Assembly (NCBI GenBank): GCA_023151255.1
Contig: JAKLJG010000016.1
Coordinates: forward strand, 1-47,195
From: Cyclobacteriaceae bacterium
GTDB lineage: Bacteria > Bacteroidota > Bacteroidia > Cytophagales > Cyclobacteriaceae
Direction: 5' to 3'
Length of the DNA: 47,195 nucleotides
The notes beneath the pieces were generated by a model, which searched no databases, was not told the origin of the DNA, and was given only the letters and a program-made list of their open reading frames with translations. Positions 9,963-22,012 of the stretch are shown piece by piece. The translations under genes and the position numbers were made by a program. Position 1 is the stretch's first letter. Each line of letters starts with the position of its first letter.

Positions 9963-12647
9963 TTAAATATCGTACGATAAATTAGGCGCCAACCATTTTT
10001 CTACATCAGCAACCTTCATCCCTTTACGTTCAGCATATTCTTCAACCTGATCGCTATTAATTTTACCAAGCCCGAAATAACGCGCCTCAGGATTGGCAAA
10101 ATAATATCCGCTTACCGAAGCTGCAGGATACATGGCGAATGATTCGGTTAACCGGATGCCGGCTTTACGTTCAGCTTCCAGGATTTCAAAAACCGTTCGC
10201 TTCTCCGTGTGGTCGGGGCAAGCCGGGTAACCGGGGGCCGGGCGGATGCCTGAATACTTTTCGGCTATCAGTTCTTCGTTAGTCAGGTTTTCGGCCCTGG
10301 CATAGCCCCAAAATTCTTTTCGCACCTTTTCATGCAAACATTCCGCAAATGCTTCCGCCAGCCGGTCGGCCAGCGCCTTGGCCATAATTTCTGAATAATC
10401 ATCGTGGGCTGCCTTGTACCGCTCAACCAGTTTTTCCAAACCAATACCGGCAGTTACGGCAAATAACCCGATGTAATCTTCCTTGCCGGTAGCCTGCGGA
10501 GCAATAAAATCAGCCAGCGAAAAGTTAGGTAGTCCCGCTGCCTTTTTATTTTGTTGCCTGAGGAAATGCAGGGTGGCAAATGGCCGATCTGCTCCGGCAT
10601 CAAACAACTTTACATCATCGGTCGGTGTACTTGCGGCACGGTAAAAAGCAACAACCCCGTTGGCGCGCAAACTTTTTTCGGCAATAATATTATCGAGCAT
10701 ACGCTGGGCATCGTTGTATAATTTTGTTGCTTCACCACCAACTACGGCATCATTCAATATTTGCGGGTAACGTCCGGCCAGCATCCAGGTTTGAAAAAAC
10801 GGTGTCCAGTCGATGTACTTCCGTAACTCATCCAGCGGAAAATCAAGCAACACCTTTTTACCAATAAATGAGGGTTTCGGTGGGTTGCAGGTGTTCCAAT
10901 CGATTGCCAACCGGTTGCTTCGCGCTTCCACTAAAGAAATGTAGTTTTTCTGTTCCTTACGCGATTCGTGCGCCTCGCGCAATTTCCGGTACTCTTCCTT
11001 TGTTTTGGCTTTAAAGCCTAAACGTGTAACCCCACTAATCAACTCGCTGGCCACCGGCACACTGCGCGAAGCATCGAGCACATGCACTACGGGGCCATCA
11101 TATACGGGATCAATTTTAACAGCCGTGTGAATACGGGAAGTGGTGGCTCCGCCAATCAGCAGCGGAACTTCGAACTGCTGGCGTTGCATTTCTTTCGCCA
11201 CGTGTACCATCTCATCGAGCGAAGGGGTAATCAGCCCGCTGAGCCCGATGATATCAACATTCTCCCGCTTAGCTGTCTCCAAAATCTTTTCAGCAGGCAC
11301 CATTACGCCCAGGTCGACAACATCGTAGTTGTTGCAGGCCAGCACTACCCCAACAATATTTTTGCCGATGTCGTGTACATCGCCTTTAACGGTGGCCAAA
11401 AGGATTTTAGCGGCAGGTTTTCCGGTTTGTCCACTTAGTCGCTTCTCTTCCTGCAGGTACGGCTCCAGGTAGGCCACTGCCTTCTTCATCACCCGCGCAC
11501 TTTTTACCACCTGTGGCAAAAACATTTTACCGGCACCAAACAAATCGCCCACTACATTCATGCCTTGCATCAAAGGCCCTTCAATAACTTCAAGTGGTTT
11601 GCCGTACTTCTGGCGGGCTTCTTCGGTATCCTGATCAATAAAATCAATAATCCCCTTTACCAATGCATGTGTGATGCGTTCTTCAACTGAGCCGTTGCGC
11701 CATGCCTCATCGGTTTCTTTCTTTTTTGCTAAACCTTTCACGGTTTCGGCAAATTCGAGCAGTCGCTCTGTAGCATCATCCCTGCGGTTCAGCAATACAT
11801 CTTCAACACGCTCCAATAACGCTTTATCAATTTCATCATACACCTCAAGCATGGTTGGATTTACAATGCCCATGTCCATACCATGCTGAATGCCATGGTA
11901 CAGGAAAGCTGCGTGCATGGCTTCGCGTACTTTCTGATTTCCTCTAAAACTGAATGAAACGTTACTTACCCCACCGCTAACGTGCACATGCGGCAGGTTC
12001 TCCCGAATCCACCGGGCGGCCTTAAAGAAATCAAGCGCGTAATTACGGTGCTCTTCAATGCCAGTAGCCACCGGAAAAATATTTGGATCAAAAATGATAT
12101 CCTGCGGAGGAAATTTTACGTTGTTTACAAGTATATCGTATGCGCGTTTACAAATAGCAATGCGCCTTTCAAACGTATCGGCCTGGCCTTGCTCATCAAA
12201 GGCCATAACAACAACAGCAGCCCCGTAGCGCCTTACAAGTTTAGCCTGGCGGATGAATTCTTCTTCGCCTGCTTTCAGGCTGATGGAGTTAACAATGCCC
12301 TTGCCCTGCAAACACTTCAATCCCGCTTCAATCACTTCCCATTTGGATGAGTCAATCATTACCGGCACGCGTGCAATTTCCGGCTCTGCGGCCATCAGGT
12401 TAAGGAACTTGACCATAGCGGCTTTTGAGTCGAGCATGCCTTCGTCCATGTTCACGTCAATCACCTGGGCACCTCCCCGCACCTGGTCGAGTGCAACTTC
12501 AAGCGCTTCATCGAACTTATCTTCTTTGATGAGCTTAAGAAATTTTGCTGAACCGGTAACGTTGGTCCGCTCTCCGATGTTGATGAAATTCGAAGCCGGG
12601 GTAATGGTAACGGGTTCGAGGCCGCTTAGTCGAAGATATTTATGCAT
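9963..12647 (-). CDS. metH: Cobalamin-dependent methionine synthase, C-terminal part (folate, B12 and activation domains)
   Basis: This 894-residue protein carries the last three functional parts of MetH. It has a pterin/methyl-THF-binding domain ([27 protein letters not shown]), a B12 cap and B12-binding domain with [10 protein letters not shown] (His is the lower cobalt ligand), [13 protein letters not shown] and LLIGGATTS, and an AdoMet reactivation domain with [16 protein letters not shown]. The homocysteine-binding domain is missing because it is encoded by the separate gene just upstream, whose last 8 bp overlap this start. An exact GGAGGTGA lies 3 nt before the ATG, unusual for this phylum, and probably drives re-initiation. 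The split form is known in Bacteroidetes. Confidence 0.96.
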
Positions 12648-13671
12648 GAATCACCTCCACCGCTCTGGGCTTATAGCGTGCTGCAACCTCCGCAATCTTC
12701 CGGATGTGTTCCGGTGTGGTGCCGCAACAACCGCCTACAATATTCACAAGACCTTCCTTCAGATATGCTTCTATTTGAACCGCCATCTCATCGGGTGTCT
12801 GGTCGTAATGACCGAACTCATTTGGCAAGCCCGCATTCGGATAAGCACTTACAAATGTTTCTGATTCTTTAGCCATTACCTGCAGGTACGGGCGCAACTG
12901 GTTGGCGCCTAACGCGCAGTTTAGCCCAATGCTTAACAAGGGAACATGCGAAACAGAAATCATAAAGGCCTCGGTAGTTTGCCCCGACAGGGTGCGCCCG
13001 CTTGCGTCCGTAATTGTTCCCGAAACCATGATAGGTAACGGGCCTACATCTCCCCTTAAGGGGGAACTGAGGGTGGTGTGCTCTTCAAAGTACTTTTCAA
13101 TGGCAAACAAGGCTGCCTTGGCATTGAGCGTATCAAAAACTGTTTCAACTAAAAGCAAATCAACACCACCTTCAACAAGACCGGCTGTTTGTTCATAATA
13201 AGCTTCGACCAACTCATCGAAAGTAATGGCCCGGTATCCTGGGTCATTTACATTGGGAGAGATGGAGGCAGTTTTGTTCGTTGGGCCGAGGGCTCCTGCA
13301 ACAAACCGTTGTTTTGCCGGATTATCCATCGTGAACTCATCAGCTACTTCGCGTGCAATTTTTGCTGATTGAAAATTTAATTCATACGCCAGCGATTCCA
13401 ACTGGTAGTCGGCCTGAGCAACGCGTGTACTGCTAAAAGTATTGGTTTCAATAATGTCGGCCCCTGCTTCAAGGTATTGGCGATGAATCGCTTTAATGAT
13501 GTCAGGCCGGGTAATCGAAAGCAAGTCGTTATTCCCCTTTAATGGTCGGGGATGATCCTTTAACAGTTCACCCCGAAAATCCTGTTCATTAAGTTGGTAG
13601 CGCTGAATCATGGTACCCATAGCACCATCCAGCACAAGAATTCGCTCTTTTAAAATTTCGCGTATACTCAT
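12640..13671 (-). CDS. metH: Methionine synthase, N-terminal homocysteine S-methyltransferase subunit
   Basis: This 343-residue protein is the zinc-dependent homocysteine-binding barrel of MetH. It shows [16 protein letters not shown] (13-28), [26 protein letters not shown] and the three zinc-ligand cysteines Cys252 (GLNCALG) and Cys315/Cys316 (GGCCGTTP). It hands homocysteine to the B12 and folate domains encoded by the overlapping downstream gene. It is the first gene after a SAM-I riboswitch, so SAM presumably represses it. Residues about 197-212 ([16 protein letters not shown]) are an extra loop encoded by a palindromic repeat element, inserted in frame just before the conserved MVSGTI strand. 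Confidence 0.95.
12649..12658 (-). promoter_or_regulatory. Strong Shine-Dalgarno for metH C-terminal gene
   Basis: On the minus strand GGAGGTGATT lies within the last codons of the upstream metH gene and directly before the ATG at 12647. It is a near-perfect anti-Shine-Dalgarno complement with 6 nt between GGAGG and ATG. Other genes here lack such sites. It likely keeps the two halves of MetH in balance by translational coupling. Confidence 0.65.
13049..13078. repeat. Palindromic repeat element read through in metH
   Basis: TCTCCCCTTAAGGGGGA followed by ACTGAGGGTGGTGT lies inside the metH coding sequence. Its core is an inverted repeat and its downstream part closely matches the element at 19884-19914. 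On the coding strand it encodes [12 protein letters not shown] and keeps the frame. Confidence 0.6.
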
Positions 13672-15151: not shown

Positions 15152-17965
15152 ATGAAAAAAATTCTACTCTCGGTTTTGATCATGATGGGTACAGCCGCAG
15201 CGTTTGCGCAGGTGCCCGGTACGCTTTCCTATCAGGGAATTCTGGTAAAGACAAGCCCCCCAGCTGATGCCGGTAAGCCCGTTGACGATGGGGTTCATTT
15301 TGTCAGGTTCCGGTTTTTTAATGTTCCTACCGGTGGAACGGCTGTGTACTCCAGTACCGGAACAGGCTCAGGTAATTCGGTTACTACCTATAAAGGGATG
15401 TTCTCGTTTATTATAGGGTCAGGTTCGGCAGGCAATGACCCTATCCCGGCAGGCATTTTCAACGAACAACTCTATGTTGAAATTGAGGCAGATGGAGTAA
15501 CGTTAACACCGCGTATTCCATTAACCACAACACCCTATACATTCAGAGCGCAAACGGCTAATTCGGCAACTGCGCTTACCACAACCCTGGGCATTGCCGG
15601 TGGCGGTACCGGTGCCACTACTGCGGCTGCCGCTCGGACGAACCTGGGGCTTGGTTCACTTTCAACATTAAGTTCAGTGGGCTCATCAGAAATTACAGAT
15701 GGCTCCGTTGCAACTGTTGATCTTGCAGATAACTCCGTTACCTCAGCAAAAATTGTTGATGGTACGGTAGCTACAACTGATTTAGCTGACAACTCCGTTA
15801 CAGCCGCAAAGATTTCAGACGGCACCATCGCCAATGCCGATATCAATGCTGCAGCCGCTATTGCCGTAACAAAACTGGCCGCTGGTACTAACGGCCAGGT
15901 ATTAACCACCTCGGGCGGTGTACCCACCTGGACAACCCCCTCAGCAGGTGGCACAGTAACCAACGTGGCCACAGGTACCGGCCTGACAGGAGGCCCCATA
16001 ACAACTACCGGTACCATCAGCATTGCTACTGGAGGTGTAACTACAACGTTGCTTGCCGACAATTCCGTTACCAGTGCCAAGATTGTAGATGCAACTGTGG
16101 CTACTGCCGACCTTGCCGATGGCGCAATATCCACCGTGAAACTTGCCGACAACTCGGTTACCAGTGCTAAAATTGTGGATGCCACTATTACAACAACTGA
16201 TCTTGCTGATGCACTGATTACAACGGCTAAACTTGGAGATAACTCAGTAACTAGTGCCAAAATTGTCGATGGAACAATAGCCACGGCCGATATTGCCGAT
16301 GGCGCCATTACCGCAGCAAAATTAGCCGCAGGCTCTACCCTTTCAGGCAGCGGTGCAGCCAACCGCGTAGCCTTCTGGTCAGGCACCAGTGCCCTAAGTT
16401 CTTCATCAACACTAACGTGGAGTGGTACCAACTTTGGCATAGGCCCGGCAACGGCCAGTAACTTTCTTCATATCGCTGCCGATGTTACAGGTGCTTCCGT
16501 AGCAACAATGGAAGGACATTCGACAACCTCCAGCCGCGGACCAGGCATTACGTTTCTCCGGTCAAAAGGCAGTGTGGCAACGCCAAGCGCAGTCGCTGAT
16601 GGTGATTACCTTGGCGGCATTGGCGCTATGGGAAGAACGGCATCAGCTTATAACATCAGCAGTGGAATCCAGTTTGAAGTTGACGGAACTGTTTCGGGCA
16701 CCAGCGTACCCGGTCGGATAGTGTTTTCAACAACCACAACAGGCTTCTCCTCTACCAGTGAGAAAATGAGATTGACCAATAGCGGAAGGTTAGGTATTGG
16801 AACAAATGCCCCTGCCAGTTTTCTTGATGTAGCAACAGATGGAAACCAGTGGAACCTCTCTTCTACTGAAGGAGATTTTAAGATTGGATCCACAACACAC
16901 CGAATAAAAATGGGTATAGCAACTTCCGGGGGCGGTGCTGGCGATGCGTACATTGGTTCACAGGGTGGAACAAATCGGTTGTTTTTAGGCGCTGGTACAA
17001 CACTGGCACAGTTTCAGACGATGACATTAACAGGTGGTAGTGTCGGTATCGGTACTACGGCACCGGGAGCACTGCTTGATGTTAATGGCACTGCAGTATT
17101 CAGGGGATTTACTGGAATTAATACAACAACATCAATTGGTGCCTCAGTATTTGTTGCTTCAGGAACTGCTACTGCAGGTAATTATACCGGTATGTATCTT
17201 AATGGATCAGATGCCGCAAGTTTTCCTTTCTACGGCTATGCAACAGCTGGGGTAGCCAGAATGTGGCACTACTATAATGGTTCAACAGGAAATTGGGTAC
17301 TATGGAATGGTGGTGACCGTATGTTTGTTACCAATACAGGTAATGTAGGTATAGGAGCAGCACCAACCTTCAGGCTTGATGTAACTAATACAACAACGCC
17401 TGGAAGATTTTATAACTCAACTAATGGTACCGCATCTGACGTATTGTACTTACGAGGAGGAAGTAACACATCCTCGGGTTCTTGGTTTATTCTTTTCCAA
17501 CGAAATGATGGAACATCTATTGGAACAATCTCCCAAGCTTCAGCAACTTCCGTTGCTTACAATACAACCTCCGATCTTAGGTTAAAAAATATTTTAAGAG
17601 AGTCGAATAAAGGATTATCCGATTTAATGAAAATCAAAGTCTACGATTACTATTACAAGGACGATAAAGAGAAAAATGTAAGAATGGGTTTCATTGCCCA
17701 ACAAATTGTTGACGTTTATCCTCAGGCAGTTACCCCTCCCCAACCAGATAAAAACAATGATCCAAAAGAAAATCCGTGGGTGATGGACTATGGAAACGTA
17801 ACACCTCTTTTAGTCAAAGCGGTTCAGGACCAACAACAACTAATTAACGCACAGAACGAAACTATTAATGGTCTGAAAGCCGAACTGGCCGAACTCCGTA
17901 AAATGGTAATGGCACAGCAGCCCAAGGAAGGAACGACCACTACGGCCTCAGTAGGTAAAGAATAA
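15152..17965 (+). CDS. Secreted tail-fibre-like protein with C-terminal S74 self-cleaving chaperone domain
   Basis: The 937-residue protein starts with a signal peptide (MKKILLSVLIMMGTAAAFAQ). A beta-rich N-terminal domain runs to about residue 150, followed by low-complexity repeats at about 180-392 built on the unit DLADNSVTSAKIVDGT. A fibre region rich in GIGTxAPxxxLDV motifs spans about 400-790. The C-terminal intramolecular chaperone (Peptidase_S74) has SDLRLKNI with the predicted cleavage Ser807 and Lys812, then MGFIAQQIVDVYPQAV, and a final coiled coil. S74 domains trimerise phage tail fibres and then cut themselves off. Here it probably assembles a trimeric cell-surface fibre. It heads a four-gene co-directional run, 6 bp before the next gene. 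The role in this host is unknown. Confidence 0.88.
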   Translation: MKKILLSVLIMMGTAAAFAQVPGTLSYQGILVKTSPPADAGKPVDDGVHFVRFRFFNVPTGGTAVYSSTGTGSGNSVTTYKGMFSFIIGSGSAGNDPIPAGIFNEQLYVEIEADGVTLTPRIPLTTTPYTFRAQTANSATALTTTLGIAGGGTGATTAAAARTNLGLGSLSTLSSVGSSEITDGSVATVDLADNSVTSAKIVDGTVATTDLADNSVTAAKISDGTIANADINAAAAIAVTKLAAGTNGQVLTTSGGVPTWTTPSAGGTVTNVATGTGLTGGPITTTGTISIATGGVTTTLLADNSVTSAKIVDATVATADLADGAISTVKLADNSVTSAKIVDATITTTDLADALITTAKLGDNSVTSAKIVDGTIATADIADGAITAAKLAAGSTLSGSGAANRVAFWSGTSALSSSSTLTWSGTNFGIGPATASNFLHIAADVTGASVATMEGHSTTSSRGPGITFLRSKGSVATPSAVADGDYLGGIGAMGRTASAYNISSGIQFEVDGTVSGTSVPGRIVFSTTTTGFSSTSEKMRLTNSGRLGIGTNAPASFLDVATDGNQWNLSSTEGDFKIGSTTHRIKMGIATSGGGAGDAYIGSQGGTNRLFLGAGTTLAQFQTMTLTGGSVGIGTTAPGALLDVNGTAVFRGFTGINTTTSIGASVFVASGTATAGNYTGMYLNGSDAASFPFYGYATAGVARMWHYYNGSTGNWVLWNGGDRMFVTNTGNVGIGAAPTFRLDVTNTTTPGRFYNSTNGTASDVLYLRGGSNTSSGSWFILFQRNDGTSIGTISQASATSVAYNTTSDLRLKNILRESNKGLSDLMKIKVYDYYYKDDKEKNVRMGFIAQQIVDVYPQAVTPPQPDKNNDPKENPWVMDYGNVTPLLVKAVQDQQQLINAQNETINGLKAELAELRKMVMAQQPKEGTTTTASVGKE
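15690..16325 (+). repeat. In-frame degenerate repeats in the S74 fibre protein
   Basis: Repeats of 16-17 codons encode variants of DLADNSVTSAKIVDGTVATT. DNA copies have diverged (mixed codon use) while the protein pattern is kept, unlike the DNA-identical array at 1-563, so this array is old and under protein-level selection. Confidence 0.8.
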
Positions 17966-17971
17966 TAAGCC

Positions 17972-19849
17972 ATGAGAAACCTCATTCTTATTTTGATATT
18001 CCTGGCCGGAGGATGGCACGCACTCGCACAGGTGCAAATACCCATGCAAACCTTCATCTCCGGGGGCACGGGTACTTTCCAAATGGGCGCGATAGCCTCC
18101 TTTGGTAATATCGGTCAGCCGCTGGTATTTCCCCGCACAACAGCCACCAGTTCCGGTGGCGGGGTTGCCGTTGCAGCCGACCTGATGTTTTCGGACGTGG
18201 CCATTGATAACAATCCCCCTGCGTTTGTCGGTTCACCAACTATCACGGTTACCAAGTCTTCTGGCGGAATAACCGGTACCCTTTCGGCTAATGCTACCGA
18301 TGCCGAAAGTACGCCCCGTGTGTATATGTATCACCGCCCGATTGCCGGTGGCGGTACGTATGACTCTACTCAACTCACCGGGGCAGGCCCGTTTACGCTG
18401 GATTTGAGTACGCTAACCGAAACAGAATACGACAACATGGGTATTGAGTATTATCTCAAAGCGTTTGATTCCAAACCAAATGTTGCTCGGCATCCAATTT
18501 CAGGTACCTTACTTGGGCGGATGACGGATCCGGATGCCAAAGTGCCTGCAGCACTGCTATCTTATGGCAACCAACAAACGAACTACCGAATAATCGGTAT
18601 TCCTTATACCCTTAGCGGTGCAATCGCTGAGGTGTTTACGGATATTGGTCCTGCTGATAAAGCTAAGTATCGCATTTTCAGGTATGAAAGTTCCCAAAGT
18701 TACGTAGAGGGACCAGGTGACTTTAACACCATCGATCGCGGCAAAGGGTATTTTATCATCCAAGCTGCTAACCGAAGCAATGTTGTTCTTAAAATGGGTT
18801 CACAACAAGCGCCTAACAACAACCGAAACAGTCTCTATCAAATGAGCCTGCACAATGGCTGGAACCTGATTGGTAATCCCTACACGGTTCCCATCAACTG
18901 GGATAACGTAAAAGCCTATACGGGTAACAACGGCTCAGCACTCGGTCAGTTAAAAGTGTACGGAGCCGGTGGATACACAAATGCTACACAACTGGAAGCC
19001 TTCCAGGGTGCGTTTGTAAATGTAACCGGTAACCAAACTGTTACCATTCCGTTCCTCGGTCAAACCACACCCGGTGGCCGCGAAAAACCGGAGTTCGTAA
19101 CGGATATCAGTCAGCCTAACTGGAAAGCGGGCCTCACCATCACCCAGGGCGAACTGACCAACCAACTCAGCGAATTCGGTATGCACCCGGTCGCTTCCGT
19201 GCAGGCCGATGAAACGGATGATTTCAATCCGCCACCGTTGTTCGATTTTGTGGAGATCAACTTCCCCCATCCCGAGCACCAGCTTGGCGCCTTCGCTACC
19301 GATATTGTTAACCCGCAAGCCGAATATGTGTGGCGCTTCAATGCCGATGTAAGCCGGCCCGATGATGCCGAGTTGTCGTGGAGCAACCAACACTTCGGCA
19401 ATAATAACCTTGAATTGTACCTCTATGATGTACAGACCAACCGCATCATCAACATGCGCGAAGACAACCGGTATGTGTTTAGTCCCGCACAGTCCAAGCA
19501 ATTCAAAATTTATTACGGAGTTGATATCCGCGAACGAATCGGCCCGGATGAAATACAAGTGCTGGAGCCCTACCCAAACCCGTTTGCTTTAAAGCAGCCG
19601 CTAACATTTTCCATCGGGTTGCCTGAAAATCCGGGGAATAGAAAATATGCTGTTAACCTGGTTATCCGCAACAACATGGGCCAACCGGTATTCACGTATG
19701 GCGACCAGTTAAATCCGGGCGTACATACCATTACCTGGGACGGCCGCAGACCCGATGGCGAGGCCAATGCCCAGGGCTTTTATGTGTACTCGGTTAAAGC
19801 CGGCAACCGCACCTTTACCGGCAAAATCCTCTTCCTAAACAGCCATTAA
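17972..19849 (+). CDS. Secreted multidomain protein with T9SS C-terminal sorting signal
   Basis: The 625-residue protein has a signal peptide (MRNLILILIFLAGGWHALAQ), an Ig/fibronectin-like region with YDSTQLTGAGPFTLDLS, and a central beta-rich part containing HNGWNLIGNPYTVPINWDNV. The C-terminal domain of the T9SS type A kind starts at VLEPYPNPF and shows the FlgD-like pattern VRNNMGQ...GVHTITWDGRRPDG...GFYVYSVKAG. The C-terminal signal sends proteins across the outer membrane through the type IX system, usually leaving them on the surface. It begins 6 bp after the S74 gene and ends 1 bp before the next ATG, so all three are surely co-transcribed. Its ligand or activity is not recognisable. 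Confidence 0.88.
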   Translation: MRNLILILIFLAGGWHALAQVQIPMQTFISGGTGTFQMGAIASFGNIGQPLVFPRTTATSSGGGVAVAADLMFSDVAIDNNPPAFVGSPTITVTKSSGGITGTLSANATDAESTPRVYMYHRPIAGGGTYDSTQLTGAGPFTLDLSTLTETEYDNMGIEYYLKAFDSKPNVARHPISGTLLGRMTDPDAKVPAALLSYGNQQTNYRIIGIPYTLSGAIAEVFTDIGPADKAKYRIFRYESSQSYVEGPGDFNTIDRGKGYFIIQAANRSNVVLKMGSQQAPNNNRNSLYQMSLHNGWNLIGNPYTVPINWDNVKAYTGNNGSALGQLKVYGAGGYTNATQLEAFQGAFVNVTGNQTVTIPFLGQTTPGGREKPEFVTDISQPNWKAGLTITQGELTNQLSEFGMHPVASVQADETDDFNPPPLFDFVEINFPHPEHQLGAFATDIVNPQAEYVWRFNADVSRPDDAELSWSNQHFGNNNLELYLYDVQTNRIINMREDNRYVFSPAQSKQFKIYYGVDIRERIGPDEIQVLEPYPNPFALKQPLTFSIGLPENPGNRKYAVNLVIRNNMGQPVFTYGDQLNPGVHTITWDGRRPDGEANAQGFYVYSVKAGNRTFTGKILFLNSH

Positions 19850-19850
19850 T

Positions 19851-20645
19851 ATGAAGCTATTAAAATATATTAACCCAATTATTTCCCCCCTTCAGAGGGA
19901 AGTGAGGGGGGTGTTACTAGCCTTTCTGTTAGTCTCAGTGTTCACCTCCAACGCCCAAACCGTAGCCATTTCATGGGTTGAAATCTCGGGAACTAAAATA
20001 ATTGTCCACTACGACCTCGAAACCAGCAACCCTAACCACGAATTCACGATAAATCTTTTTTCATCAAAAGATAACTTCTCCGCGCCCCTTACCAAGGTTA
20101 CCGGAGACGTGGGTAATGAGATTAAGCCCGGAAAGGATAAAAAGATAATCTGGGACGTAGTGGCCGAATTGGGAAGTTTTAAGGGCGATTTGGAGCTTGA
20201 AGTGCGTGGGAAAATTTTTGTACCTTTCATGAAACTCACGAATTTCGACACCGAAAAAAAGTATAAAAAGGGCAAAAGCTACCCGCTCACATGGACCTCC
20301 GGCAATATGGGTGGCCAGATTGATATTGAACTTTATGATGGCCAAACCCGCGTACACAGCGACCGGAACGTTGCCAACAGCGGTAAGTTTGAATGGGTAA
20401 TTCCGGGCAGCGTGAAGCCTGGGAGCAATTACCGGCTAAAGTTCACTGATACTAAAAATCGTGAAGAAGTGATTTATACAAAGGAGTTTAGAATTGTGCC
20501 GAAAATGCCTATGGCTGCAAAAGCACTTATTGGCGTAGCTGTAGCCGGTGGCCTTGCAGGTGCCTTAATGGCCGGTGGCGGTGGCGGAGGTGACGGAAAC
20601 ACCTCAGCCGATTTACCGGGGCCACCCCCCCCTCCGGGCAACTAA
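19851..20645 (+). CDS. Secreted Kre9/KNH-like domain protein with glycine-zipper C-terminus
   Basis: This 264-residue protein has a hydrophobic signal (VLLAFLLVSVFTSNAQ) preceded by PIISPLQREVRG, which is encoded by a palindromic repeat element and supplies the basic residues of the signal peptide. The body has two beta-sandwich modules; the second, KGKSYPLTWTSGNMGGQIDI ... WVIPGSVKPGSNYRLKF, resembles the Kre9/KNH (Ser-Thr-rich membrane-anchor) domain. Near the C-terminus AAKALIGVAVAGGLAGALMA is a glycine-zipper-like membrane segment, followed by poly-Gly and a PGPPPPPGN tail that includes a run of eight C at 20625-20632. It lies 1 bp after the T9SS gene and 50 bp before the caspase gene. 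The function is unknown. Confidence 0.75.
   Translation: MKLLKYINPIISPLQREVRGVLLAFLLVSVFTSNAQTVAISWVEISGTKIIVHYDLETSNPNHEFTINLFSSKDNFSAPLTKVTGDVGNEIKPGKDKKIIWDVVAELGSFKGDLELEVRGKIFVPFMKLTNFDTEKKYKKGKSYPLTWTSGNMGGQIDIELYDGQTRVHSDRNVANSGKFEWVIPGSVKPGSNYRLKFTDTKNREEVIYTKEFRIVPKMPMAAKALIGVAVAGGLAGALMAGGGGGGDGNTSADLPGPPPPPGN
19884..19914. repeat. Palindromic repeat element read through in a signal peptide
   Basis: TCCCCCCTTCAGAGGGAAGT followed by GAGGGGGGTGT matches the element in metH in order and spacing (inverted core, then GAGGG(G/T)GGTGT). It encodes SPLQREVRGV, without breaking the frame, at residues 12-21 of the KNH-like protein. Confidence 0.65.
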
Positions 20646-20695
20646 CGATTTTGTTAATACGTAAACTAACCTGACTAATAAATAAGCAAACACCG

Positions 20696-21925
20696 ATGAA
20701 AAAATTAATCGCCCTCTCGCTTGTGTTTCTAATCACCACACCCGCGTTGTTCGGGCAAACGATTAGCGCAAAAACCAACAAGGTATCGGTTGATTTTACG
20801 AATGCAAAGAATGATACCAACTCTTCGTTCCCGAAGATAAACTGGATAACCCCGGTAAACGAAACAGTTTTCCAGAAGGATGCCAAATTCGAAGTGAAAT
20901 TCAACATCGAATCGCGCGATCCACTGGTTAAGGTAACCGTTAACGTCCGCGAGAAGGACTCTTCGCCTTCCCTTCGCGGTGGAACCACAGTTTCGCAGGG
21001 TGCCCTGCGTGGATCCATGCCGGTGGAAGTAAAGGAAGGGGATAAATACAACATGCTGGTCGAACGCAAAATCACCCTGCTTGATGGCGTTAACGAAGTG
21101 GAGATCATCGCAGAAAACCAGCAGGGCGTTAAGGCCTCCAGTTCACGCTTTGTGCATGTGGGCGAAACACTGACAGCCGATGCCGGCAAACTTCAACGTA
21201 CCGACTATGCGCTTATTATTGTAACCGATAAGTACGAAAACTGGCCGAAGCTTACCAATCCGGTATTTGACGGCCGCACCATTGGTCGCGAGTTGGAGAC
21301 AGCTTTCGGGTTTAAAGTAGATATTGTTGAAAACCCTACCCAGGATCAGATTTGGGCCAAATTGCGCGAGTATGCCGAAAAGAAATATATGCCACTTGAC
21401 CAACTCTTTATTTTTGTTGCCGGGCACGGCCACTTTGATGATACCTTTAAAGAAGGCTACCTGGTGGTTAAAGAATCACTCATCAACGATGCCGGTAACT
21501 CTACCTACATCTCGCATAACCGGTTACGTAACAACATCAATAACATCCCATGCGAACACATCTTTCTGACCATGGATGTATGCTTTGGAGGAACATTTGA
21601 TGACGCAATTGCTTCCTCCCGCGGAGCGATGGAATCACCGTATAAGGAAATTTCCCAAAGCGAATTCATTACCCGTAAACTGGCCTACAAAACCCGCAAG
21701 TATTTAACCAGTGGAGGCAAAGAATACGTTTCCGATGGAACCCCCGGACACCACTCTCCTTTTGCTTCACGGGTAATTGCAGCCCTGAAAAGCCGTGGCG
21801 GTAACGATGGTATACTTAGTCTTAACGAACTGCTTACTTACGTTGAAAAACTTAATCCCGAACCAAAGTTCGGTAAGTTTGGTAGCGATGCACCCGGCAG
21901 TGAGTTTGTATTTGTGGTTAAGTGA
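20696..21925 (+). CDS. Secreted caspase-fold (C14) cysteine protease
   Basis: The 409-residue protein has a signal peptide (MKKLIALSLVFLITTPALFG), a beta-sandwich domain at about 45-155, and a C14 caspase domain at about 168-400. The catalytic dyad is visible as His244 in FIFVAGHGHFDD and Cys296 in LTMDVCFGGTFDD. The usual first strand (YALIIVTDKYENW) and the FDGRTIGRELETAFGF helix are also present. Caspase-fold enzymes cleave after basic or acidic residues and often process partner proteins; the signal peptide puts this one outside the cytoplasm. It is last in the S74/T9SS/KNH gene run and is followed by an intrinsic terminator. Residues 89-106 (SSPSLRGGTTVSQGALRG) look like another repeat-derived insert. 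Substrate and activation are unknown. Confidence 0.9.
   Translation: MKKLIALSLVFLITTPALFGQTISAKTNKVSVDFTNAKNDTNSSFPKINWITPVNETVFQKDAKFEVKFNIESRDPLVKVTVNVREKDSSPSLRGGTTVSQGALRGSMPVEVKEGDKYNMLVERKITLLDGVNEVEIIAENQQGVKASSSRFVHVGETLTADAGKLQRTDYALIIVTDKYENWPKLTNPVFDGRTIGRELETAFGFKVDIVENPTQDQIWAKLREYAEKKYMPLDQLFIFVAGHGHFDDTFKEGYLVVKESLINDAGNSTYISHNRLRNNINNIPCEHIFLTMDVCFGGTFDDAIASSRGAMESPYKEISQSEFITRKLAYKTRKYLTSGGKEYVSDGTPGHHSPFASRVIAALKSRGGNDGILSLNELLTYVEKLNPEPKFGKFGSDAPGSEFVFVVK
20961..21010. repeat. Possible repeat-derived insert in the caspase gene
   Basis: This stretch encodes SPSLRGGTTVSQGALRG inside the N-terminal beta-sandwich. The SPSLRGGTT string resembles peptides produced when short palindromic genomic repeats are read in frame. 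It contains GCAGGGTGCCCTGC as a local inverted repeat. Membership in the same family as the 13049 and 19884 elements is not certain. Confidence 0.35.
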
Positions 21926-21941
21926 TTAAATCAGTAATCAT

Positions 21942-21971
21942 AAAAAAGCCCGGAGCGTTCCGGGCTTTTTT
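21942..21971. terminator. Bidirectional intrinsic terminator
   Basis: AAAAAAGCCCGGA (21942-21954) and TCCGGGCTTTTTT (21959-21971) form a 13-bp stem with loop GCGT and T-runs in both directions. It lies between the caspase gene and the convergent ppk1, serving both. Confidence 0.93.
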
Positions 21972-22012
21972 ATTTGTTGTTATCTGATAGGCAGCAGTAA
22001 ATGAAGCCGAGG

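What the first reader, a model, noticed from the sequence alone, without database searches (positions are those of the whole stretch)
15152..21925. Four-gene secreted module: self-cleaving S74 fibre, T9SS protein, KNH-like protein and secreted caspase-fold protease
Four genes with signal peptides run in one direction with gaps of 6, 1 and 50 bp and end at one strong terminator. A fibre with a phage-type S74 chaperone (Ser807) and an exported caspase-fold enzyme with an intact His244/Cys296 dyad are not a pairing I know as a named system. One possibility is a surface fibre assembled by self-cleavage and processed or armed by the protease, with the T9SS and KNH-like proteins as anchors. The family calls are seen in motifs; the joint function is inference.
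Basis: partly seen in the sequence, partly recalled or inferred. Interest (0 to 1): 0.8.

Follow-up and report, generated by a model that had tools for sequence, protein, structure and literature searches.

The report
Secreted caspase, Ig adaptor, T9SS adhesin
Three neighbouring genes for exported proteins (a caspase-like protein, a two-Ig-domain membrane protein and a surface-exported adhesin-like protein) stay together in many related environmental bacteria, and the phage-like fibre beside them here is an exchangeable extra, which points to an undescribed surface-protein system.

Summary
The conserved unit is three genes, not four. In 51 of 51 named Bacteroidota loci with at least 9 kb readable upstream, the caspase has a KNH gene and a type IX secretion (T9SS) cargo gene beside it; S74 occurs in 0 of 77 such loci. 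The KNH protein is two Ig domains, a hydrophobic helix and a C-terminal Pro-x-x-Pro tail. The usual cargo is giant (median 2,045 aa); here it is 625 aa, and a separate fibre gene lies upstream where it is short (4 of 4 readable loci, against 1 of 68 long ones). The fibre's S74 end is replaced in a close relative. The caspase has acids predicting Arg/Lys cleavage (74 of 74 aligned), but in two genera 6 of 6 sampled module caspases have lost the catalytic Cys, so proteolysis cannot be the whole function. Best reading: a cargo-dedicated surface-display set in which the Ig protein joins caspase to T9SS cargo. The gene association is shown; joint function is inferred. Seven literature searches found no description.

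The parts
15152..17965 (+). Exported fibre-like protein, 937 aa; tail-fibre-like repeats, no T9SS C-terminal signal found; accessory and variable
17570..17734 (+). S74 intramolecular chaperone domain, Ser807 and Lys812
17972..19849 (+). T9SS cargo with C-terminal sorting domain, 625 aa; short member of a family with median length 2,045 aa
19553..19846 (+). T9SS-type C-terminal sorting domain (FlgD_ig / Por_Secre_tail-like)
19851..20645 (+). KNH protein: signal peptide, two Ig domains, hydrophobic helix, Pro-rich tail; proposed adaptor
19959..20216 (+). Ig1 (residues 37-122): the part found beside or fused to other caspases
20217..20501 (+). Ig2, the Pfam Kre9_KNH domain (residues about 123-217)
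20511..20570 (+). Predicted hydrophobic helix, residues 221-240, preceded by conserved Lys218-x-Pro220
20616..20642 (+). Extreme C-terminal Pro-x-x-Pro motif (Pro258 55 of 55, Pro261 52 of 55)
20696..21925 (+). Exported C14 orthocaspase-type protein, 409 aa: beta-rich N-terminal part plus caspase fold
21269..21271 (+). Asp192 codon, predicted S1 acid (helix alpha-1)
21425..21427 (+). His244 codon of the catalytic dyad
21575..21583 (+). Asp294-Val-Cys296: second predicted S1 acid and catalytic Cys
21940..21973 (+). Terminator-like hairpin closing the gene run

Best explanation
It is a surface-display set dedicated to one T9SS cargo. SHOWN: three genes, T9SS cargo, tandem-Ig (KNH) protein and exported orthocaspase, are kept together and diverge together; the fibre is an exchangeable extra. 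INFERRED: all are exported by Sec. The KNH protein is held at a membrane by its hydrophobic helix and works as an adaptor, its Ig1 side facing the caspase and its Ig2/tail side facing the T9SS protein. The T9SS protein crosses the outer membrane and carries an adhesive head, built in as FN3, beta-propeller-like or laminin-G domains in the giants examined, and supplied in trans by the S74-type fibre here. The caspase, predicted to cut after Arg/Lys, trims or releases the cargo or the adaptor during export; in two genera the caspase fold is kept without catalysis, so it also has a binding role.
For: Conserved trio: 51 of 51 loci with >=9 kb upstream. Genome level: KNH in 44 of 52 family genomes with a caspase match at E <= 1e-60, against 16 of 144 others (only the best 14 and 9 candidates per genome were scored). 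Correlated distances r 0.89 / 0.82 / 0.85 over 50 loci, largest of 999 permutations 0.27. Ig1 without Ig2: 11 of 14 such ORFs lie within 6 kb of a same-strand caspase gene (two of the 14, L169 and L219, are pieces of ordinary KNH genes), and one 710-aa ORF fuses Ig1 to the caspase. Of 11 KNH gene runs that could be read to their end, 10 have the T9SS gene and 7 the caspase (regions picked by me, some because a caspase was known nearby). T9SS present: PorU in the own genome, 1317.7 bits. Asp192 and Asp294 invariant in 74 of 74, placed like TbMCA2 Asp95/Asp211 and MALT1 Asp365/Asp462 (PMC4357240, passages; that the second Asp lies two before Cys in those enzymes is recalled). Orthocaspases cleave after positively charged residues (PMC6426788, abstract). 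Fibre with short cargo 4 of 4, with long cargo 1 of 68.
Against: Genera g47 and g59: 6 of 6 sampled module caspases lack Cys296 (Val instead) and 2 of 6 also lack His244 (Tyr), while a KNH gene was found in three of the six genomes; so cleavage is not essential there. Three KNH-T9SS loci have no caspase (L197, L203, L225). No T9SS signal was found on the fibre, so its route to the surface is unknown. L069 has an upstream S74 gene although its cargo is long. The KNH helix has basic residues on its N-terminal side and an acidic/Pro tail, so its membrane and topology are unclear. Lys218 is missing in 4 of 55 KNH rows (one is Arg), which weakens it as a cleavage site. The Ig1/Ig2 division of labour rests on gene neighbourhoods; no complex was modelled.
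Confidence: 0.42

Rival explanations
1. The caspase-fold protein is mainly a non-catalytic chaperone or docking subunit of the KNH-T9SS pair, and proteolysis is a secondary or ancestral trait.
For: In two genera the caspase gene still follows the T9SS gene in 6 of 6 sampled loci although Cys296 is lost; KNH was found in three of those six genomes. Pseudo-orthocaspases are known but rare in Bacteroidetes, 10 of 1078 (PMC6426788, passages).
Against: His244, Cys296, Asp192 and Asp294 are invariant in the 74 caspases of A4, which implies selection on catalysis in most lineages.
Confidence: 0.22
2. One reading: a four-part machine in which an S74 self-cleaving fibre is processed or armed by the caspase, with T9SS and KNH proteins as anchors.
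For: Gene order and gaps; Ser807/Lys812 spacing fits autoproteolysis; fibre present where the T9SS head is missing.
Against: S74 in 0 of 77 named loci; fibre C-terminus replaced by a non-S74 domain in L061/L114; the trio occurs without a fibre in most loci.
Confidence: 0.1
3. The caspase is a secreted effector or defence protease (cell death, fratricide or anti-predator), and its neighbours only deliver it.
For: Programmed cell death, and a fratricidal role for extracellular forms, were suggested for prokaryotic caspase homologues (PMC3501461, passages); weak PADLOC 'caspase' match E 3.4e-4.
Against: No T9SS signal on the caspase, conserved position in sister genomes, co-divergence with an Ig protein and adhesin-like cargo, dead enzymes retained. 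An immunity gene was not searched for.
Confidence: 0.08
4. The genes are unrelated exported proteins that happen to be neighbours.
For: None beyond the different domain families.
Against: 51 of 51 conservation, one fusion of Ig1 with a caspase, no KNH beside 10 control caspases.
Confidence: 0.02

Closest known systems
T9SS type B cargo with a linked PorP/SprF-like shuttle (PMC12618676, outline and abstract; PMC9143113, abstract in the listing)
   Same: A T9SS adhesin-like cargo whose gene is linked to a dedicated partner that decides its export or location.
   Different: The C-terminal signal here matches type A-like profiles weakly, and the partners are a tandem-Ig protein and a caspase, not a PorP-like protein.
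PorU sortase and gingipains (C25, clan CD) of the T9SS
   Same: Clan CD cysteine peptidase tied to T9SS cargo (PMC4357240, passages; PMC8545088, abstract in listings).
   Different: C14, not C25; PorU is present separately in the genome; no T9SS signal was found on the caspase.
Bacterial orthocaspases / metacaspases (PMC3501461 and PMC6426788, passages)
   Same: p20 caspase fold, His-Cys dyad, acid on alpha-1 and before the Cys.
   Different: In the 2012 survey 529 of 671 sequences had no localisation call (98 membrane, 30 extracellular, 7 intracellular). This group is exported, without the extra N-terminal repeats seen in the longer control caspases, and tied to KNH and T9SS genes.
S74 phage fibres (T5 pb1, K1F endosialidase; PMC4690869, passages)
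   Same: C-terminal S74 chaperone with Ser and Lys in register; phage tail-fibre families match.
   Different: Exported by Sec from a chromosomal locus; the neighbours checked (ppx, ppk, gyrB, metH) are not phage genes; the S74 end is replaceable.

Membership tests
C14 orthocaspase | Caspase p20 domain | tested here: met
   Pfam C14 E 2.3e-15; Foldseek hits MALT1, caspase-9, caspase-1, AtMCA, best E 4.9e-9, TM-score by query length only 0.35-0.41
C14 orthocaspase | His-Cys catalytic dyad | tested here: met
   74 of 74 in A4; Cys lost in 6 of 6 sampled from two other genera
C14 orthocaspase | Acidic S1 pocket for Arg/Lys | tested here: met
   Asp192 and Asp294 invariant in 74 of 74, positions as in TbMCA2/MALT1; by sequence position only, cleavage not assayed
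T9SS cargo | Sec signal peptide plus C-terminal sorting domain | tested here: met
   FlgD_ig above cut-off; Por_Secre_tail 22.5 of 23 bits, just under; homologue L045 scores 34.1 against a cut-off of 27 on PF18962; signal peptide read by eye
T9SS cargo | T9SS in the same genome | tested here: met
   PorU model, 1317.7 bits over a 420 cut-off
T9SS type B cargo/shuttle pair | Adjacent PorP/SprF-like gene | tested here: not met
   No PorP/SprF match among the four module proteins or the neighbours ppx, ppk, gyrB, metH
Self-cleaving S74 fibre | Ser at the junction with Lys at +5 | tested here: met
   Ser807, Lys812
Self-cleaving S74 fibre | Actual autoproteolysis of a trimer | not testable with these tools
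   Needs protein
Eukaryotic KNH/Kre9 | KNH Ig-like domain | tested here: met
   E 7.2e-10
Eukaryotic KNH/Kre9 | Role in cell-wall glucan assembly | not tested
   Recalled family trait; not expected in a bacterium
Anti-phage defence caspase systems | Match to a defence model with its partner genes | tested here: not met
   Only weak matches, E 3.4e-4 for caspase and 3.9e-3 for the fibre, none for the other two

The most novel reading that the evidence does not exclude
A previously undescribed class of surface-display unit in Bacteroidota: each giant T9SS cargo travels with its own clan-CD processing enzyme and a tandem-Ig membrane adaptor carrying a new C-terminus (Lys-x-Pro, hydrophobic helix, Gly-rich spacer, Pro-x-x-Pro end). 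The cargo head can be detached and replaced by a phage-type fibre made from a separate gene, and the enzyme can turn into a non-catalytic subunit.
Probability: 0.35. Interest if true: 0.8.

Novelty: new variant of a known kind. Interest (0 to 1): 0.6.

Why it matters
Caspase-fold proteins of bacteria are often discussed as death or defence enzymes (my reading of the field; PMC3501461 also lists signalling and other roles). Here one is stably tied, with an Ig-domain protein, to type IX secretion of a large surface protein, and the set occurs in named strains of Chryseosolibacter, Chryseotalea, Ekhidna, Imperialibacter and Marivirga. That offers a testable non-death role for exported orthocaspases, a possible second kind of cargo-dedicated T9SS partner, and a natural comparison of active and dead enzymes in the same gene setting.

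Tried and rejected
I first thought that loss of the catalytic Cys and loss of KNH go together, because G062 and G074 have a dead caspase and no KNH match. Wider sampling refuted it: G469, G478 and G502 also have dead caspases but have a KNH gene. Chance adjacency was rejected. A mobile or phage origin of the module was not supported: the fibre matches phage tail-fibre families, but the locus keeps its place in sister genomes. A defence-system label was rejected. Lys218 of KNH as the cleavage site was considered but is missing in 4 of 55 rows. Solved-structure searches by sequence gave only weak caspase hits (best E 0.0016) and nothing for KNH below E 0.26. The S74 profile was built partly from wrong-strand letters; it was rebuilt and only the later result is used.

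Counting limits. The 78 loci are the best of 238 candidates, so they are the nearer relatives; one (L169) was dropped because its caspase ORF was not called, leaving 77. A4 holds the window and 73 of the 75 complete caspase ORFs listed; A3 holds the window and 54 of the 57 KNH ORFs listed there. The match tables were cut. Searches scored only the best 9, 14 and 9 candidates per genome, so their counts are lower bounds. The 52 strong-caspase genomes were copied by me from the table (E <= 1e-60). The KNH regions were chosen by me, some because one search showed a caspase nearby and some because it showed none, so the fractions describe that choice. For one search the fibre profile was seeded from seven fibres already noticed, nine loci known to repeat a fetched region were left out, further repeats may remain, the four short-cargo loci include two sister species, and L061, L062, L132 and L211 (short cargo, under 2 kb readable upstream) were not counted.
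Full report
WHAT IS THERE. Four + strand genes at 15152-17965, 17972-19849, 19851-20645 and 20696-21925 with gaps of 6, 1 and 50 bp, then a hairpin terminator at 21940-21973. They encode an S74 fibre, a protein with a T9SS-type C-terminal domain, a Kre9_KNH protein and a C14 caspase. Each begins with a signal peptide (read by eye) that ends before Gln; Gln36 (KNH) and Gln21 (caspase) are invariant in 55 of 55 and 74 of 74 aligned homologues, which fits the Bacteroidetes Q-rule (PMC5837995, abstract in the listing). The module lies between ppx and ppk; the sister loci L060, L061 and L062 agree as far as their stretches reach.

THE CONSERVED UNIT IS THREE GENES. The own genome has a second set on another contig: KNH, a 607-aa protein, a 2,309-aa T9SS protein and a caspase. 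In the 147 relatives searched, 70 have a caspase match and 55 a KNH match at E <= 0.001. A caspase profile brought 78 named loci, titled mostly Cyclobacteriaceae, Flammeovirgaceae or Cytophagales, some only 'Bacteroidetes bacterium'. Of 77 with a called caspase, 73 have the T9SS gene on the same strand within 4 kb of the caspase start; of 51 with at least 9 kb upstream, 51 have both T9SS and KNH; S74 is found in 0 of 77. The commonest order is KNH-T9SS-caspase (44 loci), then T9SS-KNH-caspase (8). As a control, ten related caspases of other architecture (508-1,053 aa; some with TPR- or WD40-like starts, by eye) have no KNH in the 15-17 kb held (0 of 10), and one has a T9SS-like neighbour. In a family-wide sample of 196 genomes, KNH (E <= 1e-20) is in 60 and the caspase profile in 67; KNH is in 44 of 52 genomes with a caspase match at E <= 1e-60 and in 16 of 144 others. 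In the class, 13 of 295 genomes reach E 1e-10 for KNH: 5 over most of the length, 7 over Ig1 only, 1 over Ig2 only. Pairwise distances of the three proteins correlate (r 0.89, 0.82, 0.85; 50 loci; largest permuted value 0.27); shared species history contributes to this.

THE KNH PROTEIN. The model (mean pLDDT 88) is two Ig-like beta domains and a helix at 221-240; fold search gives tandem-Ig receptors such as basigin with low TM-scores, so this is fold class only. After Ig2 comes Lys218-x-Pro220 (Lys 51 of 55, Pro 53 of 55), the helix (best 19-residue Kyte-Doolittle mean 1.4-2.5), a Gly-rich stretch and a C-terminal Pro-x-x-Pro (55 and 52 of 55). Ig1 also occurs with other C-terminal domains (DUF5683-like, below its cut-off; FGE-sulfatase; Fib_succ_major). 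Of 14 ORFs with Ig1 but not Ig2, 11 lie within 6 kb of a same-strand caspase gene (two of the 14 are pieces of ordinary KNH genes), and in L242 Ig1, an FGE domain and a caspase are one ORF. Among 29 KNH places in the regions, 11 gene runs could be read to their end: 10 contain the T9SS gene and 7 the caspase; these regions were picked by me, partly knowing that a caspase lay nearby. From all this I infer that Ig1 faces the caspase and Ig2 with the tail faces the T9SS protein.

THE T9SS PROTEIN AND THE FIBRE. The median of 59 complete T9SS ORFs in the named loci is 2,045 aa. Those examined carry FG-GAP, UnbV_ASPIC, FN3, laminin-G, kelch or Big_5 domains (three giants). The window's is 625 aa. 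Loci with a T9SS ORF of 500-800 aa and at least 2 kb upstream have a fibre-like gene in 4 of 4 cases (window, L060, L045, L046); loci with longer ones in 1 of 68 (L071) (Fisher p 5e-6, not corrected for relatedness). L061 adds a fifth short case by direct homology. L069, with a long cargo, has an upstream S74 gene with another N-terminus, which this count does not include. So the fibre probably replaces the missing head. Its first 500 residues are 90-97% identical to the sister L060 per 100-residue block, but later blocks fall as low as 25-32%, while the caspase is 98.5% identical; in L061 the fibre end is a different domain without S74. The S74 catalytic pair is present in the window (Ser807, Lys812), by comparison with T5 pb1 (PMC4690869, passages). 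No T9SS signal was found on this fibre, while the S74 proteins of L069 and L221 end in what looks like a T9SS tail (for L221 also a T9SS-profile match; for L069 read by eye).

THE CASPASE. The model (mean pLDDT 81; the loop 298-317 after the catalytic Cys is below 50) is of the caspase fold, with MALT1, caspases and a plant metacaspase among the hits at modest TM-scores. Asp192 (helix alpha-1) and Asp294 (two residues before Cys296) match the S1 acids of TbMCA2 and MALT1 described in PMC4357240 (passages), so cleavage after Arg or Lys is predicted. Against a purely proteolytic role: in genera g47 and g59 Cys296 is Val in 6 of 6 sampled module caspases and His244 is Tyr in 2 of 6; a KNH gene was found in three of these six genomes.

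LITERATURE. Seven searches showed no paper that describes this gene set in their listings; six of them bear on the caspase/KNH/T9SS question and on S74. The library holds open papers only. Papers seen: PMC4357240, PMC3501461, PMC6426788 and PMC4690869 in passages; PMC12618676 outline and abstract; PMC9143113, PMC8545088, PMC12421860 and PMC5837995 as abstracts in listings.

VERDICT. A real, conserved three-gene exported unit with an exchangeable fibre. Gene association is well shown; the adaptor model, the site of action and the substrate are inference.

Noticed in passing
9963-12647 and 12640-13671 (- strand): Methionine synthase MetH is split into two overlapping genes (homocysteine methyltransferase 343 aa; pterin/B12/activation part 894 aa).
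   Followed up: partly
L060:11265-11636: In the sister genome a 123-aa ORF sits between the two metH halves; in the window the halves overlap.
   Followed up: no
L048, L212, L235, L236, L237, L239: In two genera the module caspases have Cys296 replaced by Val (6 of 6), two of them (L048, L236) also His244 replaced by Tyr.
   Followed up: partly
L042:5050-6333, L069:14063-15439, L072:1735-3111, L173:11174-12550, L176:11189-12562: A papain-family (C1) gene follows the caspase in some modules: Pfam match for L042 and L069; the other three judged by similar N-terminal sequence only.
   Followed up: partly
L010:16020-17389, L040:13548-14911, L215:1293-2656: What looks by eye like a sigma-factor gene and a following regulator are divergent from the KNH gene of the second module type.
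   Followed up: no
L242:3083-5215: One ORF fuses Ig1, an FGE-sulfatase domain and a caspase; the FGE fold also builds the T9SS PorKN ring (PMC12421860, title and abstract in the listing).
   Followed up: partly
L120:2649-20061: Two tandem KNH-T9SS-caspase modules in Chryseotalea sanaruensis; one MAG (bin.177: L118, L134, L141, L155) holds four diverged copies.
   Followed up: partly
L046:8036-10030, L045:8053-9885, L075:8391-10432, L010:12922-14745: Other exported genes lie inside some modules: a VWA protein, carboxypeptidase-regulatory-like proteins, and a pair of similar proteins of which the one scanned had no Pfam match.
   Followed up: partly
L240:737-1665: In G019 the module-type caspase is broken into pieces; no KNH match was listed for that genome.
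   Followed up: no
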